Assembly: GCA_003116995.1 (NCBI GenBank)
Contig: BDSL01000044.1
Location: 372,001 to 436,000 of the forward strand
Direction: 5' to 3'
Length of the DNA: 64,000 nucleotides
Origin: Yamagishiella unicocca
Taxonomy: Eukaryota; Chlorophyta; Chlorophyceae; Chlamydomonadales; Volvocaceae
The notes beneath the pieces were generated by a model, which worked only from the letters and a program-made list of their open reading frames with translations, had not been told where the DNA came from and did not search any database. This document shows, one piece after another, positions 20 through 63,500 of the stretch. The first letter of the stretch is position 1, and each line of letters begins with the position of its first letter. Both the position numbers and the translations under genes were made by a program.

Positions 20-91
20 GGGAGTTTGGTCTAGTGGTATGATTCTCGCTTCGGGTGCGAGAGGTCGTGGGTTCGATTCCCGCAACTCCCC
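20..91 (+). tRNA. tRNA-Pro (anticodon CGG), copy 1
   Basis: A full cloverleaf can be folded. The acceptor stem pairs GGGAGTT at 20-26 with AACTCCC at 84-90. The anticodon stem CTCGC/GCGAG encloses the loop TTCGGGT, giving anticodon CGG, which reads the proline codon CCG. The T arm contains GGTTCGATTCC. The D arm (GTCTAGTGGTAT) and anticodon arm are close to other eukaryotic tRNA-Pro genes. There is no intron and no encoded CCA, as expected for a nuclear tRNA. A near-identical copy starts 603 bp downstream. Confidence 0.95.
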
Positions 92-4891: not shown

Positions 4892-5431
4892 TTTTATTAT
4901 TTTATTAAGCGACTACTCGTCAATGGTTGTCTTCTCAGGCAGAGTCTCCACCGATTGACCGCACTCGAGTTACGAGCTTACGACGCCGTTCGATTACCCT
5001 CGATCCCTTGAATCTAGCTCGCAAATTATCTCCTACGGTATAACATCAGAGGTTCCAGAGGTGGTTGAAGGCAGTAGACTTATGTGGTGGCCCATGGGAC
5101 AACCAGCTCGATAGAATACATACCGAAAGGATAGCAACTCGATATGTCTCGACAGAAGACCCGAAACTTTCAAGGCGTAATATAGTGGAGATCTGGTGCA
5201 GCTAATGTGGTGTGTACGCTAGAACCTGCAGCTTATTCCCAGTCCACAATGCCGACAACCTGAAAATGCTGAAGACAAGACGATTTAAAATAGAAGAGGT
5301 TCGTGAGCTAATGCTGGTCATGCAGTGGTCCATAGGGTCGATGCACTTCCGTTGGGCGCTGTTCGACGACAGCTGACTTAGTAAGCCTGGGGTAGGGACG
5401 AGCAGGGAGAGGCCTTCCTTACCAAGAAACA
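4892..5431. promoter_or_regulatory. Intergenic: BTB gene promoter side and Pelota 3' side
   Basis: No coding exon is seen. The stretch lies upstream of the BTB gene and downstream of Pelota, both on the minus strand, so it should hold the BTB promoter. The immediate leader (aaaaataataaaa in gene sense) is A-rich. No clear TATA box or known motif could be assigned. Confidence 0.4.
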
Positions 5432-25049: not shown

Positions 25050-26005
25050 CCTGCCCATGGACTGCTCTCCCAATCCCAACCGCTCCACCACCGTGCATCA
25101 AGCGTAACACTTCCAGTGTCCCAGAACCCCCCTTAGCCTGCCCCTCTTGACGTTCGGAAACCCTCACAGGACAGACAGACACCCCCACTTTCCACTACAA
25201 CACGCCTGCAAACATACTTGCTCACTTCTATAATTTTATCTTTTAAACGACGCGACACCGCCGGCCGCTGGACCTCCAGAGCACCCCCCCTACCAGCCAC
25301 GCTCTGCCCGTTTCCTGCCCGCGACGAACGGCAACTACACTGCGGCAGGTCCCCACCCCCAGCACCCGCCGATTGCATTAAGGAGGGAGTGCACGCATAC
25401 GCCGTCATACGTCACGGCGCCGCTACCGCAGCACTTCTCGCACCTGGTGCACCAGGCCGCTGTGTTCCGCGGCCACCACCTCCGCGCCTCCAACAGTTAA
25501 CGGAGCACACAGCCCCGGCCGCACATCAGCTGCCCCGCTGCCCCCCACAAAGCGCCTTCCCAGTTCCCACAATGGCCAAACCAGCACAATCAGCACCGTC
25601 GTCCTCATTGGCGCTGAGGAAAGTAGACCGACCTCCTCGTGCCACAGTGATGGCTCCAGGATGCAGCCCTGCACCCAAGTGGGCCCCCCGGCTCTCCGCA
25701 AGCACGCCTGGTGACCGGCTGAGCCACGCGAGTCTGTGGGGGCTCAGGCGGCCGCGCCGAAACCCAGAGGGCTGCGATGGCTGCTGCCGCCCTGGTACAG
25801 CTGCCGTGGCGGCTGCAGGAGGGGGCCCAGGGGGCTGGCGGCATCGCCGCGCGCGCCGCTTAGGCGGCCTCGACCTGTACGGCAACAAGGGCGGTGCGGG
25901 TGCGGGTGCTGAACGCTCTGCGCCGTCACCACCATGATACCTCGTACCTGCCAGCCGTACCGTACCGTACATTCCGTACCTTCCTAAAACCTCGCAATCA
26001 CGCAC

Positions 26006-29000
26006 CTTTGACACGTCCTTGGCCGACAGATCCAGCTCCTTTCCGGTGATACGCTTGTACATGTCGAGCACGTCGTCAACCGTCGTCTCGAAGTGTGTGG
26101 TGGCGTCGTAGCCCTTGGAGATGAAGCACATGTCCCTGGCGGCGGTTGGCGGCAGGAGCGACACGTACGTGTCAGCAGGTGCGGCCAGGGTGGGGGCGCA
26201 ACGGCAACGTGCGATCAGGTGCTACCACAGCAGCGACGGCCACAAAGGCGAAGAAAAGAGCAGCAGAGCACCGATGCTGGAAGCTTCACGAAGCGCAAGC
26301 GCCGTGCAAACATGCCAGGAAGTAAGCTTCAGTGCGTGCGTGTGTGTGCGTGTGCGTGCGTGTGTATGTGTGTGTATGTGTGTATGTGTGTGTATGGGTC
26401 ATTACCTCATTGACACCAGCCCCGCCCACCGCCCCGACCCACTTGGTGCCGTCCTCCACCGGCTCACACAGGTCCCGAACCTCGACGAACTTCTCGTCCA
26501 AAGGGCCCAGCAGGGCCAGACCGGAGGACAGCTCAGCCTGGAGGGACGGGCAGGGGTGGAGGAGGTGACGGTGGCTGCAGTGGGTGCGGTGGTGGGCGCG
26601 GCATTGGTGGTGGCCGGGGGGGGGGGTAATGGCGATGGTCATGGCGGCTGCGGTGGTTGTGGTGGTGGAGACGCGAGGGACAAGTGGACAACCTAGGATG
26701 TGTTGAGCCAGGCATGGCAGGAGCGAGACAGTACGGCACTTGCTTGAGCAGCAAGGGGTGGCGTGGGCTCGGGGCGAGATGAGGGTTGCGCGAGCAGCGG
26801 CACGGTTGCCACCGCCATACCCACCCGAACCCTCCCCCCCCAGCTGCAACCCCCCCAGGCACCAGGCACCCAGCTTCCGAACCCAGCACGTCCAAGCACC
26901 TTACCTCGGGGTTGGAGGTCTCCACGGTGGTGCTGACGAAGGCAATCCACTTGTCTGCGGGAAGGGGTTTACCATAGGGCCCAGCAAATGTTCAGCTGAG
27001 GCGCTAAGTTTCAAATGACGCGCGTGGTGGTGCTGGTGCTGAACCACGCAACGTAACGTAACGTAACGCAGCACCGTCTGCTGAACCACGCAACGTAACG
27101 TAACGTAACGCAGCACCGTCGTAAAGGAAACCCAGCCGGTCGGGACACTCGCCATGAGCGCCGCCTCCTGCATCCGAACCCGCAGCACCCGAAACACGCG
27201 TCTGGAGCAGGGCCGCGGCGGCGGCGTTACCTTTGCTGGCGACGTTGTGGGCGTAGGAGCAGCAGAACACGTACATGTCGGACTTCCGGCCAGTCTGCTT
27301 CTGAGGTAGGATGATCTGCACGCTGTGCGCGTTGTCGGTGTTGGGGATGGGGTGGCTCTGCGAGGTGGGGGTCCAGGGGAGGGGCACCCCCAAGGGGGCA
27401 GTGTCAGGAACCCGAAGGATCGCGACCGCCCACTGCGCCCTCCGCATACCTACCCTCCGCATACCTACCCTCCGCATACCTACCCTCCGCATACCTACCC
27501 ACAGCAGCCAGGTGCTCCCCCTCCACCTCGACGCATACGCGCAGCCGACCGCGCCCTTCCTCCCCCCCCACTGACGTTTCCTAGCCGGTTTTACTTTTCA
27601 GTGCCGGTACGCCCCCTCCCCACGGCAGTCAACCCAGGTCCAGTAGCATGCGCGCGCGCGTCCAGGTGTTCGAAGGCTATGCACCATCTGCACTTCCCGG
27701 TCCTAGTTTGCAACCCCACTGGCACCACCATAGCTCACCATGATGGCCATGGCTCGCACCACCTTGCCCACCACTCGGACCTTTCCCGGGAAGTACGAGG
27801 GATCGCCCACCACCATCTTGGCGCGGGCCACGTCAGCTGGGGGCGGGGGGCAGGGGGATATAAAATAAACCCGCGGATCCACGGCCGTCAAACCAATGGG
27901 GGAGAGGGAGGGAGGAAGCAGGGTGAAGGGCGGAGGCAGGACGAGGTTCAAACCAATGGGGGGGAGGAAGGGAGGAAGCAGGGTGAAGGGCGGAGGCAGG
28001 ACAAGGTTCAAACCAATGGGGGGGAGGAAGCAGGGTGAAGGGCGGAGGCAGGACGAGGTTGCGCTGAGATGCTCATTAGCTCAAGACCCCTGTGGGGCCC
28101 AACATGACGGCGAACGATGTGAACGGCGTGGACGGATCTGAGCTGGTAGATACCAGCGGCAGCTCCGCCGCAGCAATACACCTTCGGGCCACCCGCCTCG
28201 TATACGTGCCGACCATCAGCGCCCAACCCAACTCGCCGAGGGCGGGGTCTCCCCGCGTCCCCGGCCCCTCCTCACCCCCGTTCTTGATGCCCACCGCCAC
28301 GCCATTCTCGTACAGCACCTCCGCCCCTGGCTGGTTGAGCATGTAGGTGCCGCCGTACACCGCCGACAGGCGCGCGAAGGCCTGGGGCAGCTCGCCCAGG
28401 CCGTAGCGGGGGTAGAGGTAGGGCGAGTTGAGGCCCTCGTACCTGAACGGAGGGGCGGCAAGGGCGGAGGGAGTCTTGAGGCGGGGGCAGCGGCGGAGCC
28501 GGCGGCCACGGAATAGGAGGAAGCGTGGAAACCGCCGGTGGGAGACGAGGTGTGGGGTGCAGCGGAGGCGGCAGGCTTCAGCGCGTGCGGCGGGTGGCCT
28601 CAGCCTCACCTGAACAGCGACTCGTGGTACAGCTTGATACGGAGCACCGTGGGCAGTGCGGACTGGGTGATGTAGGCGTCATCGCGCTGCAGGGAGGGGT
28701 GGCGAGAAGACCCGGTTACACGACATGGAGGGGGGGGGCGGGGTGGTGCAGGGGGTGCTGGTGGTGGGCAGGTGTGTATGGGGTGGGGGGAGGGGGGAGA
28801 GTGGCTGGGCCCAAAGGGGCGAGTGGTGGAGAGGGGTTTCGATTTGGTGCGCAAACCAAGACCGCTGCATTCGATTTCCGCACCTCAATCCGGTGACGCC
28901 AGCGATCCATTGGCGAGGCGGCCTGGCCCCCTGTCCTTCAACCCCCCTCCGCCCCGGGCCTCCAACCAGGCTGTCGGCTCCTCCTCCTCGTCCTCCTGTG

Positions 29001-31464
29001 CCTCAAAACTTTGTTCCTGCGCTACCCCGCTTCTCCCACCTACCCGCCCTCCAGATGCCTAATTAGAAAAATGACTGATTCCACAACTTCTGATAATACC
29101 TGGAATAAATGGCTAGAGTAGAAACTAAAGCTCGGTTCACCGGTTCGTCGGCTCCCTACCCCTGCCGCTGCCCCACCCCTCGCCTGTCCTAAACGGTTTT
29201 TCTCGCGTGCACGGGTCTTCCTTGCATTCCCCCCCGCCTCACGTGCAGCGCCAGCGCGTGTCCAATGAAGTCCTGCGTGTCCTCCGTCAGGTCGTAGTAC
29301 TTGTAGAGCTCTGCCATGGTCATGCGGGCCAGGTCCAGACCCTTGTGCGTCTTCGGGTCCGACTCCTCGTAGTCCTGAACGTAGCTGCGAGGGGGGGGGG
29401 AAGCGCCAAGGGGGAGGGGCGGTGTGAAAAGGGCAAGAGAGGGGAGGGGAGAAAACCCCCTTTGTATGACTTCAGGTAAGGAGGCTACGGCGAGGGTGCG
29501 GGTTGTCGAGGAAACTCGTTTGCACGACATCGGCGACGGAAGATGAAGAACAAGCCGGCGAACAGTTGGGGCGTTTCGGTGCTGGGTGGGTGGGCGGAGG
29601 CTGGCGTTACGTTATGGTCCTTGGAACGAGTGCGGGGGGGAGAAGGTGGTGTTGCGGGGCCGGAGAGGTGGTTGGATCGATCGCCACCGCACGGTGCCCT
29701 GGCTTGGTCTGTCACATCCACCGCGGTCCAAGGCTCCGGTCAGATGCGCCCGGAGGCGTTGCTTCACACCCATCATGAACCTCCTCCCTGCCTAGCCTAC
29801 AGGCCCCCTGCCCCCTGCTCCCCTGCCCCCCTGTCCCCCTGCTCCCCTGCCCCCTGCTCCCCTGCCCCCTCACAGGAAGAAGTTCCTAGCGCGGCGCTTC
29901 TCGAACAGCCCCATCAGCGGCGAGCGCAGAGCCTCCGCGTCGTTCGCAGGGACCTTGTACACCTTGCCCTTCTGGAGGGTGTAGCTGCCGTCAACGGCCT
30001 GGGAGCGGGGGACGGATTCCAGGTGAGGCGAGGGGGGGTTGCAAGGAAGACCCGGGAGGCTAGATAGGGTGAGGTGGGTGGGGTGAGGCGAGGTTGGGTG
30101 AGGCGAGGTGGGGTGAGGTGAGGTGGGCTGAGGCGAGGTGGGGTGAGGTGGGTTGAGGCGAGGCGAGGTGAGGGAGGTGAGGTGAGGCGAGGCGAGGTGG
30201 GGTTGGGTGAGGCGAGGTGAGGGCATCTGGGGCACCATAACGTCACGCTGGTGCTTCAAGCAGCTCCACCCAGCTGCGGTGCGTGTGCTTCTCCCGATGA
30301 GGTAGGGGCACGCGGTGTTGCTCAGGGGAGGCCCAGATCAGATCAGAGGCAGAGGAGCAGCCACACGGCGATCGCAGGCAGGTGACAGTGCTCCGCCCCG
30401 GCACTCCGAGGCCACCAGGCCCATTGTGCCTCCCCACATCGAGTACCGTATACTCGCACCGCAAACGGCCGACCTAGCTTGAACCTCCGCACAGACCACC
30501 TTCCGCCCGCCTTGGCCGTAAGGACGACACCATCGCACTAGGTGAATTGCAGCAACGGCAATAAGTTTGAATTGACGAACTGGGTCAGAGCCGCGCGCCA
30601 GCCGACGGGTTGCCGTTTCAGAGAACGACGATACCTTGCCGGATTCTTGGCTGGTGGCCGTACAGTCAACCCACCCGCCGCCTGCCCCTTGACCCATCAG
30701 TTTGCTGTCGTTGCACCCCACGACGCGCACATGTACGACCCCCCATCCAAAGCTCGTATGGTACGGCACCCACCTTGAACTCCAGGTACTTGACCACGTC
30801 CGTATGCAGCAACACCCGCACCAGCTTGCCATTAGCCAACATGAACTTGGGCACCATGTCCACGTTGTAGTCTCGGGACGCACCCAGCTTCTCGGGGGGC
30901 GCGGCGCCAGCGCGGAAGCGCTCATATAGCTACAATATATTGGGACAGACAGGGCGGTCACAAGGCAGAAGTTGCAGCTTGGGTTGCGTATGGTGTTGGC
31001 AAGGGAGTGTAGTCGCAATGTCAGGGCAATGAGCTGGCAGAGGGGCGCATAACCCGCTGAGGGAAGCTGTGGGCGCGGCTGGGTTGGTGTCACGAGCTGG
31101 CAACGCTTTCCTGAGAGCTCGAAGCCATTCTCAGGGCTTGATAACGGTATTTCAAGCGTTGAATAGGTTGGGATGCGATTGAGTGCTGCGTATGCGGGCC
31201 CACGTCGACATGCCCGTGCCCACCTGGGTCAGGCTGAGCGATGCCGACTCGCCACCATAGTAGTTATTGCGATCAACGTGTAGAACCTGGATATAAAGCG
31301 ATGCAAGTAGACGGGTGCTCAATAGCTCTGGGGCAGAGCGTTTCTGCGCTCACGGTCGGCAGGGTACGCCTTCCCACCTTCTTCTTATCCACCGACAGCA
31401 GACCACTGATAATGCACTCTTTCAGGCCTGTGCCAAGCACAATGACATCATACTCCTCGTTCAT
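26006..31464 (-). CDS. GDI: Rab GDP-dissociation inhibitor, last short exon not located
   Basis: GDI extracts prenylated GDP-bound Rab from membranes and recycles it. Twelve exons join in phase: 31464-31378, 31286-31224, 30929-30774, 29998-29874, 29384-29243, 28686-28610, 28442-28276, 27836-27739, 27357-27231, 26954-26905, 26537-26443, 26135-26006, giving 439 aa. The start [20 protein letters not shown] carries the FAD-like G-x-G-x-x-E region, followed by [18 protein letters not shown], the Rab-binding [37 protein letters not shown] and [19 protein letters not shown]. GDIs are about 445 aa, so only a few residues are missing. Exon 12 ends at a good donor (aaag|gtgcgtg) and the frame stays open beyond it, so a short terminal exon must lie between about 25.1 and 26.0 kb. 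The gene is divergent from the FNBP4-like gene. Confidence 0.93.
26330..26400. repeat. GT-rich microsatellite in a GDI intron
   Basis: An imperfect run of tgtg, cgtg and tatg units in the intron between exons 11 and 12. Confidence 0.8.
27035..27122. repeat. 43-bp tandem duplication in a GDI intron
   Basis: Two copies of a unit containing gaaccacgcaacgtaacgta and acgtaacgcagcaccgtc lie in the intron between exons 9 and 10. Each copy itself contains a run of cgtaa pentamers. Confidence 0.85.
27890..28062. repeat. About 60-bp minisatellite in a GDI intron
   Basis: Three copies, the last shortened, of a purine-rich unit beginning caaaccaatgggggggagga and containing agcagggtgaagggcggagg. They lie in the intron between exons 7 and 8, directly after a copy of the ATCCACGGCCG repeat. 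Confidence 0.9.
29185..29228 (+). repeat. CATCCACGGGTC intron repeat, copy B
   Basis: It reads cctaaacggtttttctcgcg then tgcacgggtcttccttgc, lies in the GDI intron between exons 5 and 6, and is antisense to the gene. Confidence 0.6.
30040..30225. repeat. Purine-rich GGTGAGGCGA repeats in a GDI intron
   Basis: Irregular tandem repeats of ggtgaggcgaggt and ggtgggttgaggcga in the intron between exons 3 and 4. Every unit contains a gtgag pentamer on the + strand. That resembles a splice donor, but the gene is on the minus strand, so it has no effect there. Confidence 0.8.
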
Positions 31465-47741: not shown

Positions 47742-50700
47742 CTACAGCTGCGGCTGCTGGCAGCGATTTGTCGTGGGGAGGGACACCAGCCAGGGGTTAA
47801 TGGTCGCGTTGGACAGCAGGGGGCTCTCGCCGCTAGCTCCTCCAGGGTAAAAGATCCTACAAAGGTTGAGCAGCGTGTGAGAGCCTGTTAGTTGCCTATG
47901 CGGTGCTGGCGATCAACAACAGGCTTCATTGCATCGCAGCCGGCAGCAACACTACTGCACAACGAACCGAGCCAAGGAGCCTATCACTGACCTGTAAATA
48001 CCGTTGTTGATGGCATAGGATAGCGTGGTTTGTACGGCGGAGTTGTAGGGCGTTTGAAGGGGGGTCAGGCTTGACGTGGGGCGCGGCCCGAAGTTGGGGT
48101 TGACTGGGTCGTCGTACCTGATGGGATAGATTGTTGAACGAGCAACAGCGAACACACCTCTTCTTTCACGAACTAAACAAGGACCGCAGCGGCGGCTTGA
48201 TGACGCAGATTGATGACAAAATAACTTGTTCTCTCATACACTGGAACATACAATCTGCGGTTCAGCAGGCAGCTGGTGCTATCGAACTGGTGCTATCGAA
48301 CAGGCTCCGTGCGCATTCAGCCCTTTGAACTCACAAGTCGTAAATGACGTTCAGATTCTGGACGAGCGACGGCTGGAACTGCATGGGCAGGGCCGTGCTG
48401 TTCGTCCTTCCCGCGGCGGTGTTGATGACGTGGAAGGAGCGCATCATCTCAAAATCCTGCGTGATCCGTTGATCAGTTAGTTAGTTGGTAAGTTAGTTAG
48501 TTAAAGCCTTAAGGATGGCTGGTTCGGTGAGACGCTAAACATTGTGGTGGTCCAATGATTCGGTGATGCAGCAGTGCCCATCCCCCTATTTCCGATATTC
48601 AAGACCAGTGCAGTGAACACCTAGCGGTTCTGCCTTTTGGTCTGGAACCCACTGTAACGTGTACTACTGCCAGCGGGCTCACCTCATGTACTAGGTTGTG
48701 GCAGTGGAACATGTATTCCCCACGGTGGGGCCCGAACCTGGGACGTGGATGTGGGGTGGCAGGGGGATGGGTGAGATGGGTGGGACGCAGATAGGCAGGA
48801 AGGAGGCCTCGGGGATAGGTAAGGGGGGCGGCTTCAGAGCAGTTGTGACCTGGCCTGTGCCCCTTCACCCACCTCAGCAGCAGCGCAACGTTGGAGCCGG
48901 GATCCAGCTGTACGACGTCCTTGGGGGTCCATCGCTCATACTCGTGCACCTGTTGACGAATATTTTCAAATGATGAGACGTAGGCGGCTGTGAGGACAAC
49001 GACTCTTTTCGTATCTGTGAACGCTGCCGCTGTCGTAAATCGCCAATGTACTGAGGCGCTATCTCTCCCTACTAAGCGAGGCCATGCACGCACGATCCAT
49101 GCAAGCGAGCAGCGACAGCGGGCCGACCTGTGCCTCGTCGTAGTTGCGGGTCAGGACGTAGAAGTCGACCAGGTGGATGTGGATGGGATGGAACCAGCCG
49201 CCGCCAGTCTCCAGGCACCAGACCTCCCACGTGTTCTGGCCCACATCGCCTGCAGCCACGCGAGCTGAGTGCCAGGTCTCGCCATTGATAACCCTGAGGG
49301 GGTGGGAGGTGGCGGGAACCGCCGGCATAGGGCGCAGCCATCATATGACACCAGCACCGAACACGACAAGAGCGGTTCCGAATCTGGCAGAGAAATGAAA
49401 ACGCAGCTACTGGAACGTTCCTTGGAGGTTCCCGGCCGCAGGATTACGGCGCAACAGCAAATTCAAACATTATTGGGGTACACACACAATCGTGCTTGCT
49501 TTATTTGGTATGACGGTTCTAGTAATTTCAGCATTTGTCACGTCAATGCAGCGACGCCCATTTAACATAGAAGCACGAACCCACCAGTGGCCGTGGCGAC
49601 GTCCGAAGCGGAAGGTGCGGGTGCACTGCTTGTTGCGAGCCATCTCGAGCGCACGCGGGATGTCGGTGCCGGCGCTTAGGACGGCGTCCAGCTTGGGCCG
49701 GGCGGGGGTGAGGGCGCTGAAGGCGGAGCCAGCAGGCGCGCACACGCCCCCACCGGGGCACGCTGCGACGTTGATCTTCATGACCAGGTGAGAGTGGCAG
49801 AAGAAGGGCACGGCCTTCATGCGGTATGTGTCCTGGGCGTTGAGCAGGTATAGCGTCTGGCCGGCGAGGCCCGAGAGGTCGCAGACCACCTCGTAGCGCT
49901 CAGCCACGCCCATGAAGAGACCGGCGGGCGGGAAGGGCGCCGGAGTGCGCCGGATGCCACCGTCGCCGGCGATCACCTTGCACACAGCGCCGCTGACGTC
50001 AGCGCCCTGGGCGTCGACGACGCGCAGCTTCCACGGGCGGGCGACTGCGGCGCTCAGCCACCTGCATGCAAGAAAGTAAGTGGAGGGCGGGAAGGTAGGG
50101 GGTTCGCCAATGAATAGCCTAGCCTTCCGACGTACGGCGAACAACAGATTGGCAAACTCCTACTTAGCGTTTAAAAGTCCGTTCTGGCTGTTGTTGTTGT
50201 AACGGTTACAGTGGGTTCCAGACCAGGCTGTTATTTGTTACTGTTCAAACAGCGACATGCATGGCAGCTGGATTGCTACCACCGATTTCGTTCCTCCACC
50301 ACTTGTAAGCGAGAAGGCGATATATAACCACGGTTCTGTAAACCCACCTGAAGCGCTGCCAGCGAGGCTCTAGGGTAATGACGGGCCAAGGAATGCCGTT
50401 GACGAAGTTGACGTCGCCATACAGGTTGTTCTTGTGGGGACCCTGTGGGTGTACGATAGTAAGCGTTGCCAAACGGAAAAAACAACGGCAGGACGGGGGC
50501 AGGCTTTGTCGCCACCGTGTCCTACACAGGATATTATTGGATTCATGTTCACTCACAGCGCGATCGTACAACAGCTGGCAAGATCCGTCCAGCACTCCGT
50601 CCTTGAACTGCATCTCCGTGTCAGGCACCGAATCCAGGTTCCAAGGCTCGCCGCAGCCACCCTCGGAGACGCTATCTTGCATGATGTACATGGCCGACAG

Positions 50701-51234
50701 ACCGAAGTAGGCGTTCTCTGTACCATACATATAACACGCGGGCGGTGGTGGGCAGAGGAAAGGTAGGGTTCAGCGATAGATGCTACAGCAGAGGTGCGCA
50801 TTATAAACGCCGGGGCTTCATTCTTGTGGGTTTCTCTTCGCCAGAAGGGAAAAACAGTCGGACTCAGCCAGGCACGAGTAATTCAGGCGACGGCCTGTTA
50901 GTTGCTTCAACAAACACCCACCCGAAAAGATACTACTACTACCCACCCGAAAAGTTACTACTGCTACTACCCACCCGAAGTGATCTCCAGCTGATGGTCA
51001 TGGTACCAACCGAACGCGGCGCGGCGGTTAGGGTAGTAGTAGTCCTTGCTCTCGCCCCCGCAGGTGGTGTCCTCGGCCCAGCCTGCACCCGCACGGGCGA
51101 ACGGTACGGACACGGAGTCGTTAGTTAACGGCCATCAGGAAATACGCAGAAGCAACCGGCTTGCTTACCATCGTACGGTGCAAGGCTGGCCTCGCCGTGG
51201 AGGTGCACCGAAATCGGCCGACCCTGGGGCGACA

Positions 51235-51265
<31 letters not shown>

Positions 51266-54200
51266 GTTTAGGTAGGCACTCTGTAAAGCGCCCGAAGCGC
51301 TGGCATACAGCTGTATAATATCCTGGTGCGGTCGGTCACAATAGTCCATCTATCCATCCATCCATACCGTAATGCAATATCAAGGGGAAGCAATGATGAC
51401 ACGACATATCCCATGTCCATGGTATTAGTAATGAATTGTCTGTAACCGTTACAATGCGCCGCAGACCAGAAGGTAGAGCCATCGGGTAATATTGACAAGA
51501 GCACAAGGTCGGTTACAATACCGTAACCAGGCGACGCTTCGGAGCTGCCCGTCACCTCACCTGACGCCCGGCAGTGGTGTCGCAAGGGGTGAAGGCCGCG
51601 AAGGGAGTGCCGGTGAGGTTGGCGGTTGTCAAGCGGTTGTTGAAGCGGACGAGCGTCTGGCGGCCAACCACCGCGCGGATGGTGGGTCCAGGCACGGATC
51701 CGTTGTACGACAGCATCCACGTCGGGCCGGCCGGGCAGCCCAGGTTGTGAGACACCGGATAGATGTCGATTTCGTACGCGTCCATGCAGAGGTTGGTGCC
51801 GCTCCTGTGAGCGGATTCAACCATTTGCCCAAGGACGGCGGTTAGTAACTGCATTCCTCATTATCTCACAACCATAAGCTACCTCTTGGTCTGGAACCCA
51901 TTGTAACCGTTACAACCATTCCGGTGACGTGACCTACTTGCAATAGTTGTTCGCCTTTTGTGCCGGGGGCGGCTTGGCGAAGGGCAGGGTGAAGGGCTCC
52001 CACTTGAAGGGGCTGGAGGGGAACCCCTCAACCTTGAAAACGGTTCCGTGCGCCGAGGGGCAAACCTTCGCCAGCGAGGCAAAGCCGGGGTGCGCACAAA
52101 CGGGGGAGTGGGCTGTTTATACCACGTGGCCGTTCCTTCCATCCACTGCTCGAAGCATGCAGGAGAGCCATTCGTATGAGCACTGCCGGTGCCACAATAA
52201 GACAGCGACTCGCTGAACAAGCACATGTACCGGATGGTTCTACCTTTTGGTCTGGACCCACTGTAATAACAGTTAGTTACTACTACATGTGTACATTCTT
52301 TAATCTTCCCAACCCAGGCGTACCGTACCTGGCTCGGGTCGGAGTGATACGGGGTGACTGGCGGGTCGCTCATCACGCCGTTGACGGTGACAGTTGGGGC
52401 GATGTCTGTGAGTGGACGGATGGAACAATGGGCGGGGTGAGGAAGAGATTGCTTACTACTGCAACCAACCAACAAATGCACGACAACGACGAACTTACTG
52501 TCGTCGATCGTGTTCCGCTCCAGAGGACGCTCAGGGACGGTGGTATCCCCCACAGCCGGCAGCGGTGCCATCGGCTGGACCCATGTGGGCAACACGTCCG
52601 GGTAGCGAGACATGAAAGAAAAGTAGACCACCTGGATTCATGGGCGCAGCAGCGTTTGCAGGTAAGGGACAGTGGGAGACAGCAAATACTAGAAGGTGAG
52701 GCCGATTGGGAGCCGACCTCAATTTCGGCTCATGTTTGCACTGACGGATATGCCGGGTGAGATTTGTTTGCTCTAACGTATCCAATCACGTTCATGTCCG
52801 AAAGACGCGTCAAGGTGAGTCATCCGGTACCTGACGTTCGCACGCGACCGGGACATTTGGCGGCAACCATGGTTCTGTAAAAGCCGCAAACTTTAATAAT
52901 CGTAAACTTGTTAACCCTAAACTTATGAACTTCGCACGCTTTTTCAAGTCCCAGCAACCTGCCCACCTGTTGGCTGGAAGCGTTGTAGCGATAGTCCCGG
53001 AGGGTGGTGGAGCATGTGCAGCAGTTGGGCGCGTTGACCAGGGCTGCAGGGAGGAGAGATGGGGCGCTGTGCGTGAGCGGTTACGTATGGCTGGATTCCC
53101 ATTGCCAACAGCAAAAACATGTTTGTGTAGTAGATACTGTTACGGTGGGCCCCAGACCACAAGTAGAGCCGTCGGGCGTTGGTGCCGCCTGTGCGCACCC
53201 ACATAGTTTTTGGTAACTGTAACCGTTAACCACTGTAACAGTTACAACAATAGTTTTCGTTGCTACTTGTGCTGCTTGCTTCTTCTACCCGTGACGTTGG
53301 CACGATGCGTCCAAACGCATCACTCACGGTTGTAAGGCTTAAACAAGCGCGAGTTGAACGCATTGGTGCAGGACTGGCAGTCTCTGCGGCGGCAAGTATC
53401 TGCAGCGGGGAAAGGAGACATGCAAAATAATTACGTGTGTAGTAGGTCCAAGCAACGAACACAGCCAATTTGCTGGGCCTGAGTAACCAGCTGGCTAGCT
53501 AGCATGCGAGAATGCTGCCAGCACGATGTAGTGATGAAATCAAGGGTATCTTGGGCATGCACCAAACAAGCCCGCTGACTGCCTGGCAGTGAGGTTGCGA
53601 GAGAACCCATCCAGCATCCTCGGTGGTACTCATCGTCATTTACATTGAGACTGACATATCTAAGACTACTGCTGAAGGAGGCGTAAGAGGCAGAAACCCA
53701 GGTGGTGCCTCGCTCCATCCGATGTTAGCCCGCCCCGGCTCACCCTTCGAACAGGCGGCGCACGTGCCAGTGAGGTCCAGCAGCACGTACTTCCCCTTGT
53801 ATAGGTCCTGGGTGTCGGGCGTCGCAGCTCCGGCGTAAGCTTGCGCGCAGGCGGCCTCCAGGTGGGTGCCGCTGGCACACTCGTCACCACTGATGGCGAA
53901 GCCGGAGGCGAGCGGCGAGTAAGTCGCGAAGGTGGTGACCATCTTAATGTAAGCGTTACGGTAGACGGAGTCCCACTTGGACTGGTCCAGGAAGGATCTG
54001 GCGGCGGCGCGGACGCCGGCGTGTGCGTTGCTGTCGCCCAGGCCCTGCGTGCGTGCGTGCGTCATGATGCAACAGGTCGGCGGCGATCGACTCGGTTGCG
54101 TGGCGCAGGGCCGTAGTAAAAATGTGCGTGGGATGTACGTGACAAGTCGTAGCTGAATTCCCGCCAGTCATGTCGTTACCACGGCATCCCTTCCTACGAA

Positions 54201-57200
54201 ATTAATCGTACTAATGAGGAGAATGAGAGAAAGCAAGGTTACAAGCATGGTTCAGGTGTCAGCAGGGCGGATATGCGCCCCCAATGGCCGCGCGCGCCCA
54301 CCTGGCATGCCTGGCCGATGTGCGCGTCGTTGTCAGTGTAGAGCCACATCGAGGAGTGGGGACAGTTGGACGCAGGTACGCCGTACGATGCTCCCCTGGT
54401 GCAGTTGCGGTTGCTCCACTCAACGTGGAACTCAGGCTTAGGGTCGACGTCCACGTCGGCCGTCAGACCGGCCTGAACCAGCCTCAGCCGGTTCAGAGCC
54501 ATGCTGCGGAACTCCTTGCTGGTGAACTACGGGGCGATTCGAAACGCGGGGGAGAATGATTCCTGTCCATTGAGGACCAATTGGCGAGCTGACACGCTGC
54601 TTTCTAGCGTGAATATTAATCGTCGACACGGAAAGCGCCCGAGGGCTTAACTTTTTTTTTGTAACGGTTACAGCTTAACTGTCGGAAAGTGCACTGCACT
54701 ACTGTAACCGTTACAACAACTGTAACCCCTGCTGTAAGGCTCATGCCGAAGTCGAGGTATTAGCAGTGTGAGGTGAAAACAGGTGCATAGCGAGCGACGA
54801 TTTGCTCCGAAGTCACAGTTATTCAAGACAGTTGAGGCGGTTAGGGCGGCCTCAGCGGGTTGACGGTTATCCTCTCCAAACCAGCAGCCAATCCTCCATC
54901 TTTCTATCCATACGTGCTCAATTCCTACCTTGCACGTTTCGAAGCGAGCTTCAGCGTCCAGCTCCGGTGCAGTCATGCCTAGAACGGGCGTCTCGATCGG
55001 CTCGGGAGGCTCGTCGGCCTGAATGGGCTTAACCTTGAGCGTCGGCGAACAGATATCCTTGAAGTAGTGGTTCTCCCACCTGTGATGTGGGCAGTTATTC
55101 GGCCAGATTCGCAGGTGTGAGATATGGTTGGGAGGTTGGGACGATAGGAAATGCAGCAGCTAATCGCCGGAGACGCATTGCTAATGTTTCAGTGTGGACA
55201 AATACCGAGGAGTGCGGAATGGCAAGGGGTATTTCCTCTAAGGGTATCGTACACGTCCATAACGGTTACACATACTGGCGCGACATGGGAAATGACTCAC
55301 CTAAACATGCGCACGTTGCTGCAGTCCTGCGTTGTTGGGTCGCAGAAGTCCCTGGGGGTGGGGCCCTTGAAGCAGCCCTGCAGATAGGTAATTTGGGAAG
55401 GGACGCGGCAAGGGTTCAATATAAAGTTACTTTGGCTTTGTGCTGAGGCAATCATTTTATGTCTGATTACATCTTGTCACAAGCCAATACCGATTAGAAT
55501 AACAAGCCACACATCATGTTGGCCTGAAATGGCGGAATTCTCGGCCCAACTGCCGCGCTTACGAACCTGTTTATCGACGAGTGAATGGCTGCCCATGAGA
55601 GCAGTAGCCTCCTCTGGTGAAAAGCCGCGGGCGGCCCAGAAGTCAACAAAGCCCTGTACGCCAATGGACGCCGGCGGCAGGTTGCCTGGCGGGGCGGGCA
55701 TGATGGAATCTAACCGCCCCACCCGGAGGACCTTGGTCCCGTTGGCGGGCAGGATCTTCATGCGGCCGTTGCTGAGCACCTCTGGTGCAACCGCAGCGCA
55801 CACCTGCAAGTGCATGTGTTGGTTGAGGCGGAGCGTGAGTCGTGAGGTAGGACGGGGGAGTGGCAGGGGCAACGAGGTAGCGGACGCGGGAAGTCGGTAA
55901 GACGACGCGGGCTGCTCGATACCGTACTCGGAAGAACAGCAAGCACGGAAACCCACCGCCAAGGTGTCAGCGACGCTGACGTCGAAGAAGGAAGCGATCT
56001 TCTTGGCTGCCCGCGCAGTAAGCAGCGCGAAATTGTCGTTGATGCTGCAATGACACAGGGCGGCACAACGAAGGGCTCGAGAATGACCTTACACTGGGAT
56101 CTCGGTTACCGAAGTAACACCCAGTTACAAAACAATACGGGAGCTGTGCTAGCTATTAGCTACCATGTGAACGGGTCCAAGCACGAAATCGGCGTAGGAA
56201 AGGCTACGTAACTCCCGTCGGCGGTAACACTACTGCCGTCATTGTTGCTAGGTTGGCTTATTATTTAGCTTCTTTACTACTCACTTCTCGGGGCGAATGA
56301 GCTCCTCGACTGTAAGCAACAGTGACGAGTCCGCGCCGCCGCAGTCGGGGCCGGGGCAGTTGCGCACGTCAACCGCCATGGAGTCATGGAACGAGGAGCG
56401 GATGAAGAAGTTGGCTAGGCGCTTCTCCTGCTTGAACATCGCGCGGCAGATGTCGACCACCTGTAAAAATGCGGGCAAGCATGATGCATGTATGCATGTC
56501 GGACATGAGTTATAAGTGGAGTCAGGAGTCAGGTGCGTGATGTCATCAAAGGTGTGCCTTATTAACAGCACTGGATAGCAGCGGCTGTGATAGGTAGAGG
56601 CATCAACGACGACAGCCACCCAGCAGCTGACACAGTTACTGCTGGTTATATTGCTGTTGCTGTGCAGGGGCGTGACGGACATGGGCCCCTCCTCTTGCCC
56701 CTGGGTTTTGCGCGGGCTTGAGGACACTGTAACATCCTTCTTCCTATCAATGATTCGTAAGTTTTGGCAACTTACAAGTCGCTGTACCGCCTTATTACCA
56801 ATAAGCTGCGAGCAGTACTAGATAGCCCGAGTATCCACCAACCGAAGCAGCAAATGTGTGGCGTGCAGTACCAGAAACCGCGCGCGCTGTCGTAATCAAC
56901 AGTTAGATAATACCGTGTCCTCAAGGCCGGCAACTTATTGTTGTAATTATCGTACGAGGATGTTCAGCGCCCAGTCAGGCGGTTTGCGAAGCTCAGCCAA
57001 TCATCCTACGCACTCCAGTTGCCAGCAGCTGTAACTGACGTGCAAAGCGGGACCCTTACTTACCGACGCCCAATCCTTGGTGCTCGGGTCGTACTCGTTT
57101 CCGGCCCTGGAGTTGGCTATCTTCGGGCTCCACAGGAGTACCTTGGCGTTCGTGTCGGCTAAGTCCGTGTGCGTTGAAGCGTACAGCTGCATGTCGACGC

Positions 57201-57492
57201 ACAAACGGCCGCTGCACTGGGTTGTGGCGGACAGCAGTCCGGTCACATCGACCACAATTCCGGTGACGGTTGTTACCGTCCCGCTAACGAGGCCGAGGGA
57301 TATGGCGACGGTGCTGCTGATGCCGTTGATGAGCCACGTCACTAGGCTCAGAAGTTGCGCCTGGGCGAAGTGGAAAGGGCAGCCCGGCAGGAGAAGGGCG
57401 GCGACAAGCGCAACCAGCGCAAGCGCGGAGAGGGCCTTGGGGATGGCCAAATTCCCTCGCCCACGGCCTTTGTTGTGATGAATTTCCCTCAT
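47742..57492 (-). CDS. Secreted heme peroxidase-multicopper oxidase fusion
   Basis: Twenty-six exons join in phase over 9.75 kb to give 1,336 aa. After a signal peptide (SALALVALVAALLLPG), residues about 140-545 form a plant-type (class II-like) peroxidase: distal R164 and H168 in FIRSSFHDS, proximal H304 in ALMGSHSL, GRLDS, and the final WDSVYRNAYIKM. A cysteine-rich linker follows (CAACSKDTCRRRDCQSC). Residues about 690-1336 form a multicopper oxidase with every copper ligand: HLH at 825-827, HDH at 864-866, HPIHIH at 1152-1157, HCHNLVH at 1209-1215 with C1210 and axial M1220. The HCHNLVHEDFEMM ending is of the CotA/bilirubin oxidase type. Peroxidases use H2O2 and multicopper oxidases use O2 to oxidise phenols or metals, so one extracellular enzyme may do both; that is inference. 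Exon ends are listed in a separate entry. Confidence 0.85.
48626..48672 (-). repeat. TGTAAC element in the intron between exons 23 and 24
   Basis: On the minus strand it reads cgttacagtgggttccagac then caaaaggcagaaccgc, in the same sense as the gene and about 10 nt past the splice donor. Confidence 0.7.
50187..50226 (+). repeat. TGTAAC element in the intron between exons 19 and 20
   Basis: It reads ttgttgttgtaacggttaca then gtgggttccagaccag. It is antisense to the gene and truncated after the ccagacc motif. Confidence 0.75.
50920..50974. repeat. CTACTACCCACCCGAAAAG repeats
   Basis: Three copies of a unit of about 23 bp (ctactacccacccgaaaag) lie in the intron after exon 17, up to the splice donor. 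The last copy overlaps coding sequence, so the repeat grew from the exon end. Confidence 0.7.
51238..51268. repeat. AGC trinucleotide repeat in an intron
   Basis: About nine agc/gca units directly upstream, in gene sense, of exon 16. On the transcribed strand this is a CTG run ending close to the acceptor. Confidence 0.8.
51437..51488 (+). repeat. TGTAAC element in the intron between exons 15 and 16
   Basis: It reads gtctgtaaccgttacaatgc then gccgcagaccagaaggtaga, antisense to the gene. Confidence 0.7.
51884..51918 (-). repeat. TGTAAC element in the intron between exons 14 and 15
   Basis: On the minus strand it reads gtaacggttacaatgggttc then cagaccaagagg, in the gene sense. Confidence 0.7.
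52228..52285 (-). repeat. TGTAAC element in the intron between exons 13 and 14
   Basis: On the minus strand the core is expanded (gtaactaactgttattacag) and is followed by tgggtccagaccaaaaggta and gaaccatc. Confidence 0.7.
53134..53251. repeat. TGTAAC element plus extra core in the intron between exons 9 and 10
   Basis: An element (actgttacggtgggccccag then accacaagtagagccgtcgg) is followed at 53217-53251 by isolated cores (gtaaccgttaa, ctgtaacagttacaac). The GTGGGCCCCAGAC form in this copy matches the satellite unit at 42.8-44.9 kb. Confidence 0.75.
54660..54734. repeat. Paired TGTAAC cores in the intron between exons 6 and 7
   Basis: Cores tgtaacggttacag and ctgtaaccgttacaac lie in opposite sense about 30 bp apart, followed by another ctgtaac. 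They form a small inverted pair without the ccagacc tail. Confidence 0.65.
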
Positions 57493-60562: not shown

Positions 60563-63500
60563 CTACATCCGGTGTACGTCTGGTCGCATATGCAGGAAGG
60601 GCTTCACCGTCGCCATGAAGGTCTGGGTCGGTCGTCCGTTTTCCAGAACCGCAATCTGGGACCCCAGGGGAATCACGGAGGCGGCGGGGGGGGCGAGGGG
60701 TCAGGTGGTTGCGGTGGTTAACGGGGATTTTATTATGAGGGGCGGAGTACGGAAAGGCAGCTATCGCCGCAGAGATTGTGGGGTGTCCGTGCCAGCCAAC
60801 ATGACCTCTTCCACAAATTACACAAATTACAAGCGTACGGCACGTGCTGGGTCGTACTGCGTATGTGCCCATGACGTATTGTTTTCTCCGCCGTGACGTC
60901 CTGCACTGCCGCCGCTAAGGCCGCCGCTGCTCATGCGCACATTCACCTGCACCTCCCCTCCTCTCCCCTAGCCCCCCCACCTGCCCACACGCACGCACCT
61001 CCAGCTTGCCGTCCTGCAGCCCCGCGGGCGTGTCCAGGTCCGTGCCGCTGATGTACTCGTAGCAGTCGTTGGGCGGGATGATGGGCTGCTGGCCTGGCGG
61101 GTGCAAGTGCAGGCGGGAGAGGCGAGGAGCGGTGGCGGGGAGCAGGAAGGGAAGACAAGGGACCTCCGAAGCCTCCCGTCTGCTGCCACCCCGCCTCCCC
61201 CACCAGCAAAAGAAGCCTCCCAGCAAAACCCATTTCTGCGCTGTGTTCCTTTGGCGAGTTGTTCCACGCTCTCCTCCGCCCCTCCCGCTATCCCTCCACA
61301 GCCCCCCATGCGAACTACTGCTCACCAACGATCGCGTTGCCGGGCATGTGGGGCACGTGAACCATGATGGCGCCTCGGTCGTTCTGGGGAGGGCGGAGCG
61401 CACCGGAGCAGAAGTCACGGCACCGTAGTCCAGTGTTGCGGGTCCAAAACATGTAGGCAAGGAGGACGGTCCCGGGTTCGGTGGGGTAACGCAACACGTG
61501 TTGGTCATGCGGGTTAGGCGGGGTGGGATGGATAGTTGCCCCGGCGCTGCCTGCCACGTGGGACTGTGGGCGGCGGACGTGTGTGGAGCCATTTCCGCGT
61601 TGCTGGGGGAGGGTTGTGTAGTTACAGAGGGGCAGATGGGGTGGCAGCAGCCCGCTCTGCACTCCATGTTCCCCGCTCGCTCTTCCCTAAAGCTGCACGT
61701 GCATTGCCCGTACAAGGCCGTACAGTACACGTCGGCAACACCGTAGCTTACCTTGATCGTCCACTCCCGGCCGAGCACCTGGATGGGCTCGCTCCTGCAG
61801 TACCGGTATCCAGGGAGGGGATGGGAGGGACTACAGTGTGGGAAGGAACCGGTGTTCGGAGGGACTACAGTGTGGGAAGGAACCGGTGTTCGGAGGGACT
61901 ACAGTGTGGGAAGGAACCGGTGTTCGGAGGGACTACAGTGTGGGAAGGAACCGGTGTTCGGAGGGACTACAGTGCGGGAAGGAACCGGTGTTCGGAGGGG
62001 CGGGCCGGCTGGAGGGCGGGGCAGGCCGGGCAGCCCCCGAGGGATGGGGACCGGGTCACCGGGCGCCTCGGCACCCCTCATATGGAACTGCCGTACCACG
62101 TGGCCTAACTGACCCACATCGCCCCACGTGGCATGTTCCATCGCTGCGTTCACCAACGACCTGAACCACCCAAACATTTTTACTTGCAGCCCCAAAACAT
62201 GTTCCTAACCGGCTTTCCTAGTCAGTGCTGACCCGCGGGCTTCCCTCGCAAACCCACCCAACCGGACTCGTCGCGTCGCCCCCAACCACAGCCACCCTCC
62301 TCCAAAGCGCCCCGCGCGATTTGACGCTCCTGCCTCTTGCCCAGCAGCAGAGTACCCTGGACTCCCGTGCAGTACTAAAGTACGGAAGTCGAGAGCACCC
62401 ACGGCCCCACGCCGCTATGGTGGGCCACGATTGGCGATGACGATGCTGGTACGGCAGAATGCGGTTGGTTAACGGTATTTGCACGTCGGCACACTCACCT
62501 GAGGTTGGTGATCCTGACTCTGTAGGAGAACAGGTTCTGACTTCGCCCGGCGTAGGCTGAGGCGCCCTGGCGCGTGGCGCAAGGCGGCAGGCGAGGAGGA
62601 GGGGAAGGCAGACGGGAAGGGTGCATGGGCCCAACGGCTTGGAGGGAGCCGCAGTTGTGCCTTACTGCTCGAGGGGGTTTTGAGGGGGTTACTGCTCGAG
62701 GGAGGGCGAGGTACGACTGCGCGGCGGCGAGGCGGCGGGTGCGGTGCTCAGGCGAGGCCCCTGTCGGACCCCTTCTGAGGCTTGCCTGCAGCCCCCGGAG
62801 GCCTCAGTCCTCGTCATCATGCGACAAGGGCGACAAGGGAAGATAGTCCGTTTAGCACGTAGGGGTCCGCCCCACCAACATCAGGGAACAACATCATCGC
62901 TCCCAGCGCCACTGGATTCCCCTGCCCTCACCACTTGCAGCGCCTCACTCCCACGCTCACCGTCCTGGCCGCCCAGCTTGCCACTGCTCGCTCCCTCGTT
63001 GCGCCCTCAACCTGATGCCTTGCCCGTCTACGTCGCAGATGCGGGCGCGCCTCCCATCCCAAGCGCGCATGCCAGATCGGCTGTGTCGTGCCAGCGTTGG
63101 CGAAAAAGAACCCGATCCCCCAAACCCTCTTTGCTCACCGGGCCGCAACCCACCCACCCACCCACCCACCGTGCTGAACTTTGAGGTGGCGTCCACCCGC
63201 ACGCCCTCTGTCGTACATGTGGACGAGCAGCGGTGCAGGTAGACCTGCTCCAGCAGGACGCGGAGCGCCGCCAGCGCCTGCTCGCGACACAGCACGTGGG
63301 GGCCCCCGCAGTGGGTTCCGGAGCCACCAGGCTGGCTCAGCGGCATGACCGCCTGCACCACCAGGCTCCGGCCTTCGCCAGTCCCTTGTTGCGGATCGCG
63401 CCCCCGGCGTCCCGCCCGCTCCATCCAACTCTCCGAGGCACCGTGCTACCCCAACCTGCCCGCCTCTTTGGTGCGAAAGCTTCCGTCCCATCTGCCGCAG

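What the first reader, a model, noticed from the sequence alone, without database searches (positions are those of the whole stretch)
47742..57492. One gene predicts a peroxidase fused to a multicopper oxidase
Joining 26 exons by hand keeps the phase at all 25 junctions and yields one 1,336-aa secreted protein. The N-terminal half has the distal Arg/His and proximal His of plant-type peroxidases. The C-terminal half has all four copper motifs of a CotA/bilirubin oxidase-like enzyme. A cysteine-rich linker bridges them, with no stop and no second signal peptide between. I do not know a described enzyme with this pairing. It could use both H2O2 and O2 on phenols or metals at the cell surface, and H2O2 made elsewhere could feed the peroxidase half.
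Basis: partly seen in the sequence, partly recalled or inferred. Interest (0 to 1): 0.92.

Follow-up and report, generated by a model that had tools for sequence, protein, structure and literature searches.

The report
Conserved algal peroxidase–copper-oxidase fusion enzyme
A green alga's gene really does encode one secreted protein that joins a heme peroxidase to a copper oxidase; relatives with the same layout occur in several Chlamydomonas and Volvox relatives, and our literature searches listed no paper describing them.

Summary
My model has 25 exons (not 26), all GT..AG and in phase, giving 1,323 aa (not 1,336) from the same start and stop. Spliced alignment of a Pleodorina homologue re-finds every splice site. 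A paralogue elsewhere in the genome (67% identical) shares 23 of 24 introns. Sixteen homologues from six named volvocine species, including C. reinhardtii, and seven proteins without organism name carry both domains: an old gene family, not two neighbouring genes. The copper motifs, distal Arg/His and proximal His are conserved; the expected proximal Asp is Glu in volvocine rows. The oxidase is of bilirubin-oxidase type, without the LPR1 ferroxidase motifs. Unexpectedly, the oxidase halves of volvocine and unnamed fusions are close (41–46% identical), but their peroxidase halves belong to clearly different subfamilies, suggesting that one oxidase family gained or swapped peroxidases more than once. 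Most likely role, inferred: extracellular oxidation of phenols or tyrosines, for example wall cross-linking, with H2O2 and O2. Activity, cofactors and expression are untested. Nine literature searches aimed at the enzyme listed no paper describing it.

The parts
47742..57492 (-). Whole gene, start codon to stop codon, 25 exons, 1,323 aa
   Evidence: Manual model, all GT..AG, in phase; both splice sites of all 24 introns re-found by spliced alignment of Pleodorina P0001; 23 of 24 introns shared with the C38 paralogue
57352..57492 (-). N-terminal signal peptide or anchor, residues 1-47
   Evidence: Holds the eight most hydrophobic 15-residue windows of the protein; no signal-peptide program was available
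54929..56460 (-). Peroxidase core, exons 2-6 (PF00141 matches residues 148-346)
56386..56400 (-). Distal heme-side R164 and H168 (FIRSSFHD)
   Evidence: R and H in 20 of 20 rows of alignment A1 with a letter there
55585..55587 (-). Proximal heme ligand H304 (MGSHSL)
   Evidence: His in 21 of 22 rows with a letter; the exception is P0022, which has no peroxidase domain
54929..55079 (-). Exon 6, with E338 N339 (RWENHY) where peroxidases usually have Asp-Asn
   Evidence: Glu in 16 of 16 volvocine rows with a letter (17 volvocine rows in all); Asp in P0018, P0019, P0020; Met in P0021
53744..54526 (-). Exons 7-8: insert and apparent C-terminal part of the peroxidase
   Evidence: Alignments A1 and A5; not matched by Pfam, so the assignment is inferred
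52967..53849 (-). Cys-rich linker (residues 527-596), end of exon 8 to exon 10
   Evidence: Each of the nine Cys at 527-596 is kept in every one of the 16 or 17 volvocine rows with a letter
51938..52631 (-). Exons 11-13: Pro-rich linker and GFPSSPF lead into the oxidase
   Evidence: A similar lead precedes the oxidase in P0018-P0021 and in peroxidase-less P0022
47742..51804 (-). Multicopper oxidase, exons 14-25, bilirubin-oxidase/CotA type
   Evidence: PDB sequence search, best Myrothecium bilirubin oxidase 6iqz, E 8.2e-73; Pfam
51197..51205 (-). Copper motif 1, H812 and H814 (HLH)
   Evidence: invariant in 23 of 23 rows
50975..51082 (-). Exon 16, copper motif 2 H851 D H853
   Evidence: His in 22 of 22 rows with a letter
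49173..49196 (-). Copper motif 3, W1137-F-H1139-P-I-H1142-I-H1144
   Evidence: W and the three His in 23 of 23 rows
48445..48706 (-). Copper motif 4, H1196-C1197-H1198 ... H1202 ... M1207, split by intron 22
   Evidence: invariant in 23 of 23 rows

Best explanation
Shown by sequence: one gene encodes one secreted-type protein in which a plant-type (PF00141) heme peroxidase, a Cys-rich linker and a bilirubin-oxidase-type multicopper oxidase are fused, and this fusion is conserved in volvocine algae. Inferred: both halves are active one-electron oxidases. The peroxidase uses H2O2 made by another enzyme (the oxidase half should reduce O2 to water, not to H2O2). The oxidase takes electrons at its type 1 copper and passes them to O2 at the trinuclear site. 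Most likely the two act on the same class of substrate, phenols or protein tyrosines in the extracellular matrix or zygote wall, so that cross-linking can run on H2O2 during an oxidative burst and on O2 at other times. The linker keeps the two centres together in the matrix.
For: Single gene. Conservation: 20 of 28 proteins carry PF00141 together with an MCO family, 16 of them from named volvocine species. In P0018 (1,146 aa on a 3,917-base contig) and P0020 (1,064 aa on 4,002 bases), of unnamed source, there is little room for introns or a second gene. Active sites. Oxidase type. Secretion: hydrophobic N-terminus and seven N-glycosylation sequons, many conserved Cys. Setting: a review states that the Chlamydomonas zygote wall is reinforced by isodityrosine cross-links (PMC6912462, passages read).
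Against: No transcript, protein, heme, copper or activity data were available. The proximal Asp is Glu in volvocine rows, which could change the heme chemistry. In the P0020 model (pLDDT 62) the peroxidase half is poorly modelled, with residues 231-391 below 50. The model of the volvocine-like peroxidase P0063 has low confidence (pLDDT 48); its fold matches are weak, best E 7.8e-3, although the top 20 of 29 are heme peroxidases or peroxidase domains. The link to wall cross-linking rests only on secretion, family and taxon.
Confidence: 0.5

Rival explanations
1. Extracellular metal oxidase: the oxidase half oxidises Fe(II) or Mn(II), with the peroxidase adding H2O2-driven oxidation or removing H2O2.
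For: Titles in the reference list of PMC6890756 link a CotA and heme peroxidases to Mn(II) oxidation in bacteria (passages read). That paper reports Mn oxide formation by green algae including a Chlamydomonas isolate, needing protein, and names cell-associated multicopper oxidases and haem peroxidases as a possibility.
Against: LPR1 ferroxidase motifs 2 and 3 (as printed in PMC9168544) occur in 0 of 27 family proteins; motif 1 in 7 of 27 and not in the window protein. The Mn-peroxidase site positions hold Arg, Phe and Gln (site numbering recalled). The paper gives evidence that the soluble activity is superoxide-mediated.
Confidence: 0.2
2. Only the oxidase half is catalytic; the peroxidase half binds heme or substrate but has little peroxidase activity.
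For: Proximal Asp replaced by Glu in 16 of 16 volvocine rows with a letter; large insert before the C-terminal part.
Against: Distal Arg and His and proximal His never change among peroxidase-bearing rows, although volvocine peroxidase halves are only 59-71% identical to the window's; a carboxylate is kept; P0018-P0020 keep Asp (P0021 has Met).
Confidence: 0.15
3. General detoxifying or pigment-degrading phenol or tetrapyrrole oxidase released into the medium rather than a wall enzyme.
For: Nearest solved relative of the oxidase half is bilirubin oxidase, with its Trp before HPIHIH conserved.
Against: Nothing here ties this protein to bilins; a best match to bilirubin oxidase says little about the natural substrate (recalled: CotA-type enzymes accept many substrates).
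Confidence: 0.13
4. Two separate neighbouring genes joined by eye.
For: No transcript data held here.
Against: Same order and introns in the C38 paralogue; annotated as one protein in six named species, and in proteins of unnamed source on short contigs; no second signal-like segment in the linker.
Confidence: 0.02

Closest known systems
Myrothecium verrucaria bilirubin oxidase (6iqz, 2xll) and Bacillus CotA (1gsk)
   Same: Best sequence matches of the oxidase half (E 8.2e-73 for 6iqz, 1.4e-35 for 1gsk) and best fold matches of the relative P0020 (best 50 rows shown); all copper ligands, axial Met and the Trp before HPIHIH
   Different: These are stand-alone oxidases; no peroxidase and no Cys-rich linker
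Fungal class II peroxidases (1ly8, listed only as 'Peroxidase', Coprinus as recalled; manganese peroxidase 1mnp) and ascorbate peroxidases
   Same: Distal Arg/His, GGAD-S motif, proximal His; phmmer E 2.8e-6 to 1ly8, profile E 3.2e-7 to 1mnp
   Different: Only about 150-175 residues of the query match; Glu for proximal Asp; large insert; no MnP manganese site or LiP Trp (site positions recalled, residues read); fused to an oxidase
Hybrid-type B peroxidases with C-terminal WSC domains (Cell Mol Life Sci 2014, PMC4232752, passages read)
   Same: A PF00141 peroxidase as N-terminal half of a natural fusion
   Different: Partner is a putative carbohydrate-binding domain, not a second redox enzyme; the words copper, Volvox and Chlamydomonas do not occur in that paper's main text
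LPR1-type plant ferroxidases (Arabidopsis LPR1, PMC9168544, passages read)
   Same: CotA-like multicopper oxidase in the green lineage
   Different: LPR1 motifs 2 and 3 absent in 27 of 27 family proteins, motif 1 absent in the window protein; no peroxidase half is mentioned for LPR1 in the passages read

Membership tests
Plant-type heme peroxidase superfamily (PF00141) | Pfam match above the curated cut-off | tested here: met
   57.8 bits against 27
Plant-type heme peroxidase superfamily (PF00141) | Distal Arg and His, proximal His | tested here: met
   R164 and H168 in 20 of 20 rows with a letter; H304 in 21 of 22, the exception having no peroxidase domain
Plant-type heme peroxidase superfamily (PF00141) | Proximal Asp partner of the heme His | tested here: not met
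   Aligned residue is E338 in the window and in 16 of 16 volvocine rows with a letter; a carboxylate, but not Asp
Plant-type heme peroxidase superfamily (PF00141) | Heme binding and H2O2-dependent oxidation | not testable with these tools
   needs protein
Multicopper oxidase, bilirubin oxidase/CotA type | Four copper motifs with T1 Cys and axial Met | tested here: met
Multicopper oxidase, bilirubin oxidase/CotA type | Nearest solved relatives are bilirubin oxidase and CotA | tested here: met
   (69 is for relative P0020)
Multicopper oxidase, bilirubin oxidase/CotA type | Oxidation of bilirubin or laccase substrates with O2 | not testable with these tools
   needs protein
LPR1-type ferroxidase | Acidic-triad motifs 1-3 as printed in PMC9168544 | tested here: not met
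   0 of 3 motifs in the window protein
Manganese peroxidase | Three acidic Mn ligands (E35, E39, D179, numbering recalled) | tested here: not met
   R157, F161, Q310 at those places
Lignin peroxidase | Surface Trp five residues before the proximal His (recalled) | tested here: not met
   Ala at that place

The most novel reading that the evidence does not exclude
One lineage of secreted bilirubin-oxidase-type oxidases has gained an N-terminal heme peroxidase at least twice, from different peroxidase subfamilies (volvocine algae; unnamed organisms, perhaps stramenopiles). [quoted passage not shown]
Probability: 0.45. Interest if true: 0.82.

Novelty: new variant of a known kind. Interest (0 to 1): 0.68.

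Why it matters
Enzymes that oxidise phenols with H2O2 (peroxidases) and with O2 (laccase-like oxidases) are, as far as I know, normally separate proteins. A conserved natural fusion shows that some algae make them as one unit. C. reinhardtii has at least two such genes (P0004, P0008), so the idea can be tested by knockout. As far as I recall, the enzyme that forms isodityrosine cross-links in volvocine walls is not known; these genes are direct candidates. The fusion is also a natural template for a dual-oxidant biocatalyst.

Tried and rejected
Two-gene artefact: rejected. Bacterial or viral origin of the fusion: a scan of genome contigs and one of viral contigs with profile A2 gave no relative (14 and 15 pattern matches, none confirmed); each scan uses two short peptide patterns, so they are not exhaustive. 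LPR1-type ferroxidase, manganese peroxidase and lignin peroxidase: motifs not met. Simple faster evolution of the peroxidase half as the reason for its divergence: not excluded by identities alone. P0018 against P0020 gives 46% in the peroxidase and 64% in the oxidase halves, so a drop to about 25% beside about 45% could be rate. Profile scores and the tree argue against it.

Other copies: of the 15 stretches fetched around Pfam or protein matches in the window's genome, only the C38 pair (L017, L018) and the C146 fragment (L042) match the fusion protein convincingly; L022 and L047 give one 26-27 bit match each (E 0.4-0.8) and the other ten nothing (in one search threshold E 0.01, E 1).

Structure: the model of P0020 reached pLDDT 62, pTM 0.61, its peroxidase half poor; its fold search is headed by bilirubin oxidase and CotA. 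A model of P0063 is weak (pLDDT 48). No model of the window protein itself was made, so no heme-to-copper distance can be given.

Literature: 10 searches answered, nine aimed at the enzyme and one at isodityrosine. No listed title or abstract start describes this fusion; the lists (20 of 5,721; 15 of 26; 20 of 33; 12 of 1,301) were cut, and searches found no paper at all. The library holds only open-licence PMC papers. Passages were read in six papers; those of PMC11156808 and PMC8226295 gave nothing on the fusion. The 1993 isodityrosine paper is not held. Neighbouring genes gave no H2O2 producer, but only 10 long ORFs of the window were scanned.
Full report
What is there. The minus strand of the window from 57492 to 47742 holds one gene. 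I placed 25 exons by hand; every intron is GT..AG and every junction keeps phase, giving 1,323 aa. The coding frame has a single stop, at the end; the two other frames of the same joined sequence have 31 and 30. Third codon positions are 81% G+C, against 52% G+C for the introns.

Independent checks of the gene model. I wrote a spliced aligner and placed the Pleodorina starrii homologue P0001 on the window. It re-found both splice sites of all 24 introns. Its differences were a poorly supported 5' piece, a first exon trimmed by 25 nt, a 15-nt micro-exon inside my intron 8, and an end 9 nt short of mine. The genome carries a second copy on contig C38 (about 206.3 to 193.3 kb). Its model is 66.6% identical (874 of 1,313 aligned residues), and 23 of the 24 window introns are at the same residue and phase. 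The C38 model has 27 introns; the four not shared lie at the N-terminus (one) and in the linker (three, one of them bounding a 2-nt exon), and are probably alignment noise. A third place, C146:59228-59768, matches only residues 97-200 (exons 1 and 2) in the 25 kb looked at, and looks like a relic.

The family. A search of about 5.8 billion proteins gave 28 hits; 20 of them carry PF00141 together with a multicopper-oxidase family. Sixteen of these are named: Pleodorina starrii 1, Chlamydomonas incerta 5, C. reinhardtii 2, C. schloesseri 2, Volvox carteri 1, Edaphochlamys debaryana 5; some of these gene models are partial or odd. A profile search gave 36 hits, six of them fusions, three of those new: P0029-P0031 (P0031 is a fragment). 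I take these seven to be mostly metagenomic (inference from their short contigs of 3.9-11.5 kb). A search with peroxidase halves alone gave 2 hits: P0062, another Pleodorina fusion fragment, and P0063, a 446-aa relative annotated with PF00141 only, on a 5,259-base contig whose surroundings I could not see. These searches need short exact words shared with the query and scored only about 8,000 candidates each, so more distant or differently sized relatives can be missed.

Peroxidase half. Pfam places PF00141 at residues 148-346. The nearest solved sequences are 1ly8 for the single sequence (E 2.8e-6; a Coprinus peroxidase as I recall) and manganese peroxidase for a four-row profile (best E 2.5e-7). 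R164 and H168 (distal Arg and His) are unchanged in 20 of 20 rows with a letter, and H304 (proximal His) in 21 of 22, the exception being P0022, which has no peroxidase. Where P0018-P0020 have Asp in the FDNxYY motif, all 16 volvocine rows with a letter have Glu (E338), and P0021 has Met. The Mn ligands of manganese peroxidase and the surface Trp of lignin peroxidase are absent (those site positions are recalled).

Oxidase half. Best solved match is Myrothecium bilirubin oxidase (E 8.2e-73), then CotA-type enzymes. All ten copper-binding His, the T1 Cys and the axial Met are invariant wherever a row has a letter (22 or 23 of 23 rows). The Trp before HPIHIH, aligned with the Trp of bilirubin oxidase, is also invariant. 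The LPR1 ferroxidase consensus motifs printed in PMC9168544 (passages read) are all absent from the window protein; over 27 family proteins motif 1 is found in 7 and motifs 2 and 3 in none.

An unexpected split. The oxidase halves of the volvocine and unnamed fusions are 41-46% identical by BLAST and 47% over 608 columns in a profile comparison with probability 100; each profile scores the other group at about 646-733 bits. In the oxidase tree they sit together (21 rows, 94/93 support) next to P0022, an oxidase without peroxidase (long branches flagged). The peroxidase halves behave quite differently. The profile of six unnamed halves scores nine proteins annotated with a peroxidase but no oxidase (P0032-P0040; five of the nine from EukProt or a chrysophyte) at 241-324 bits, but returns no volvocine half at all. 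The volvocine profile scores two of the six unnamed halves at 13 and 17 bits and does not list the other four. The profile comparison of the two groups reaches only 43% probability. In the peroxidase tree the two groups are far apart, and a tree holding all fusions as one clade is rejected (p-AU 6.75e-39; 1.55e-59 without P0021), with three cautions: branches are long, there is no outgroup, and the groups were named.

Against repeated fusion: P0021 falls on the volvocine side of the peroxidase tree (100/99), though on a branch of 4.22 and at only 18.9 bits to the volvocine profile, while its oxidase groups with the unnamed fusions (100/100). If real, this fits one old fusion followed by replacement of the peroxidase in one branch. 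Faster evolution of the peroxidase half is also not excluded by identities alone. I conclude that at least one of the peroxidase partners was probably acquired or exchanged separately; a single old fusion with later splitting remains possible.

How it most likely works. Shown by sequence: a single secreted-type chain with two sets of catalytic residues. Established for the families (recalled): peroxidases take H2O2 and make substrate radicals; multicopper oxidases take single electrons at type 1 copper and reduce O2 to water. Inferred: both centres oxidise phenolic or tyrosyl groups outside the cell, the peroxidase with H2O2 from another source. A review says that the Chlamydomonas zygote wall is reinforced by isodityrosine cross-linking, citing a 1993 paper (PMC6912462, passages read; the 1993 paper is not held). 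This makes wall cross-linking a concrete and testable role, not a demonstrated one. Metal oxidation is a rival: PMC6890756 (passages read) reports Mn oxide formation by green algae and mentions multicopper oxidases and haem peroxidases as possible cell-associated routes.

Is it known? The homologues whose names were shown stand in databases as hypothetical or predicted proteins or under domain names (names were cut in the listing). Nine answered full-text searches aimed at the enzyme listed no paper that, by title and abstract start, describes the fusion; some lists were cut, and most subscription journals are not in that library. The nearest published idea I saw is the fusion of hybrid-type B peroxidases to WSC domains (PMC4232752, passages read). 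I rate it a new variant of known kinds: two known enzyme families in a natural pairing that seems undescribed.

Noticed in passing
window 1361, 41852, 42006, 42121, 45434, 48633, 51882, 52243: Interspersed short repeat GGGTTCCAGACCAAAAGG: 8 matches with up to 3 mismatches against 0.12 expected; 274 exact copies in the genome against 0 for the reversed control. Three of the eight lie in introns of this gene, and four lie within 20 bases of a GTAACnGTTAC palindrome, which occurs 11 times in the window.
   Followed up: partly
G000:C38 about 193.3-206.3 kb (L017, L018): Paralogue of the fusion with the same domain order, 66.6% identical, 23 of 24 introns shared.
   Followed up: yes
G000:C146:59228-59768 (L042): Fragment matching only residues 97-200 (exons 1-2) of the protein, probably a relic.
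   Followed up: partly
window 25529-30337, minus strand: Three ORFs matching the GDP dissociation inhibitor family (PF00996), so a Rab-GDI-like gene.
   Followed up: no
window 2915-4912, minus strand: Long ORF with a BTB domain, 42.8 bits.
   Followed up: no
window 60918-61898, minus strand: ORF with a sub-threshold ApaG/DUF525 match, 25.5 bits against 27.
   Followed up: no
window 20-91 and 623-694: Two tRNA-Pro genes with the same anticodon cgg, about 600 bases apart.
   Followed up: no
P0017 (994 aa, unnamed): Relative of the oxidase half with PF00734 (CBM_1) annotated and, at residues 23-80, 55% identity over 62 columns to the end of the P0018 peroxidase half, so probably a fusion cut at its 5' end.
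   Followed up: partly
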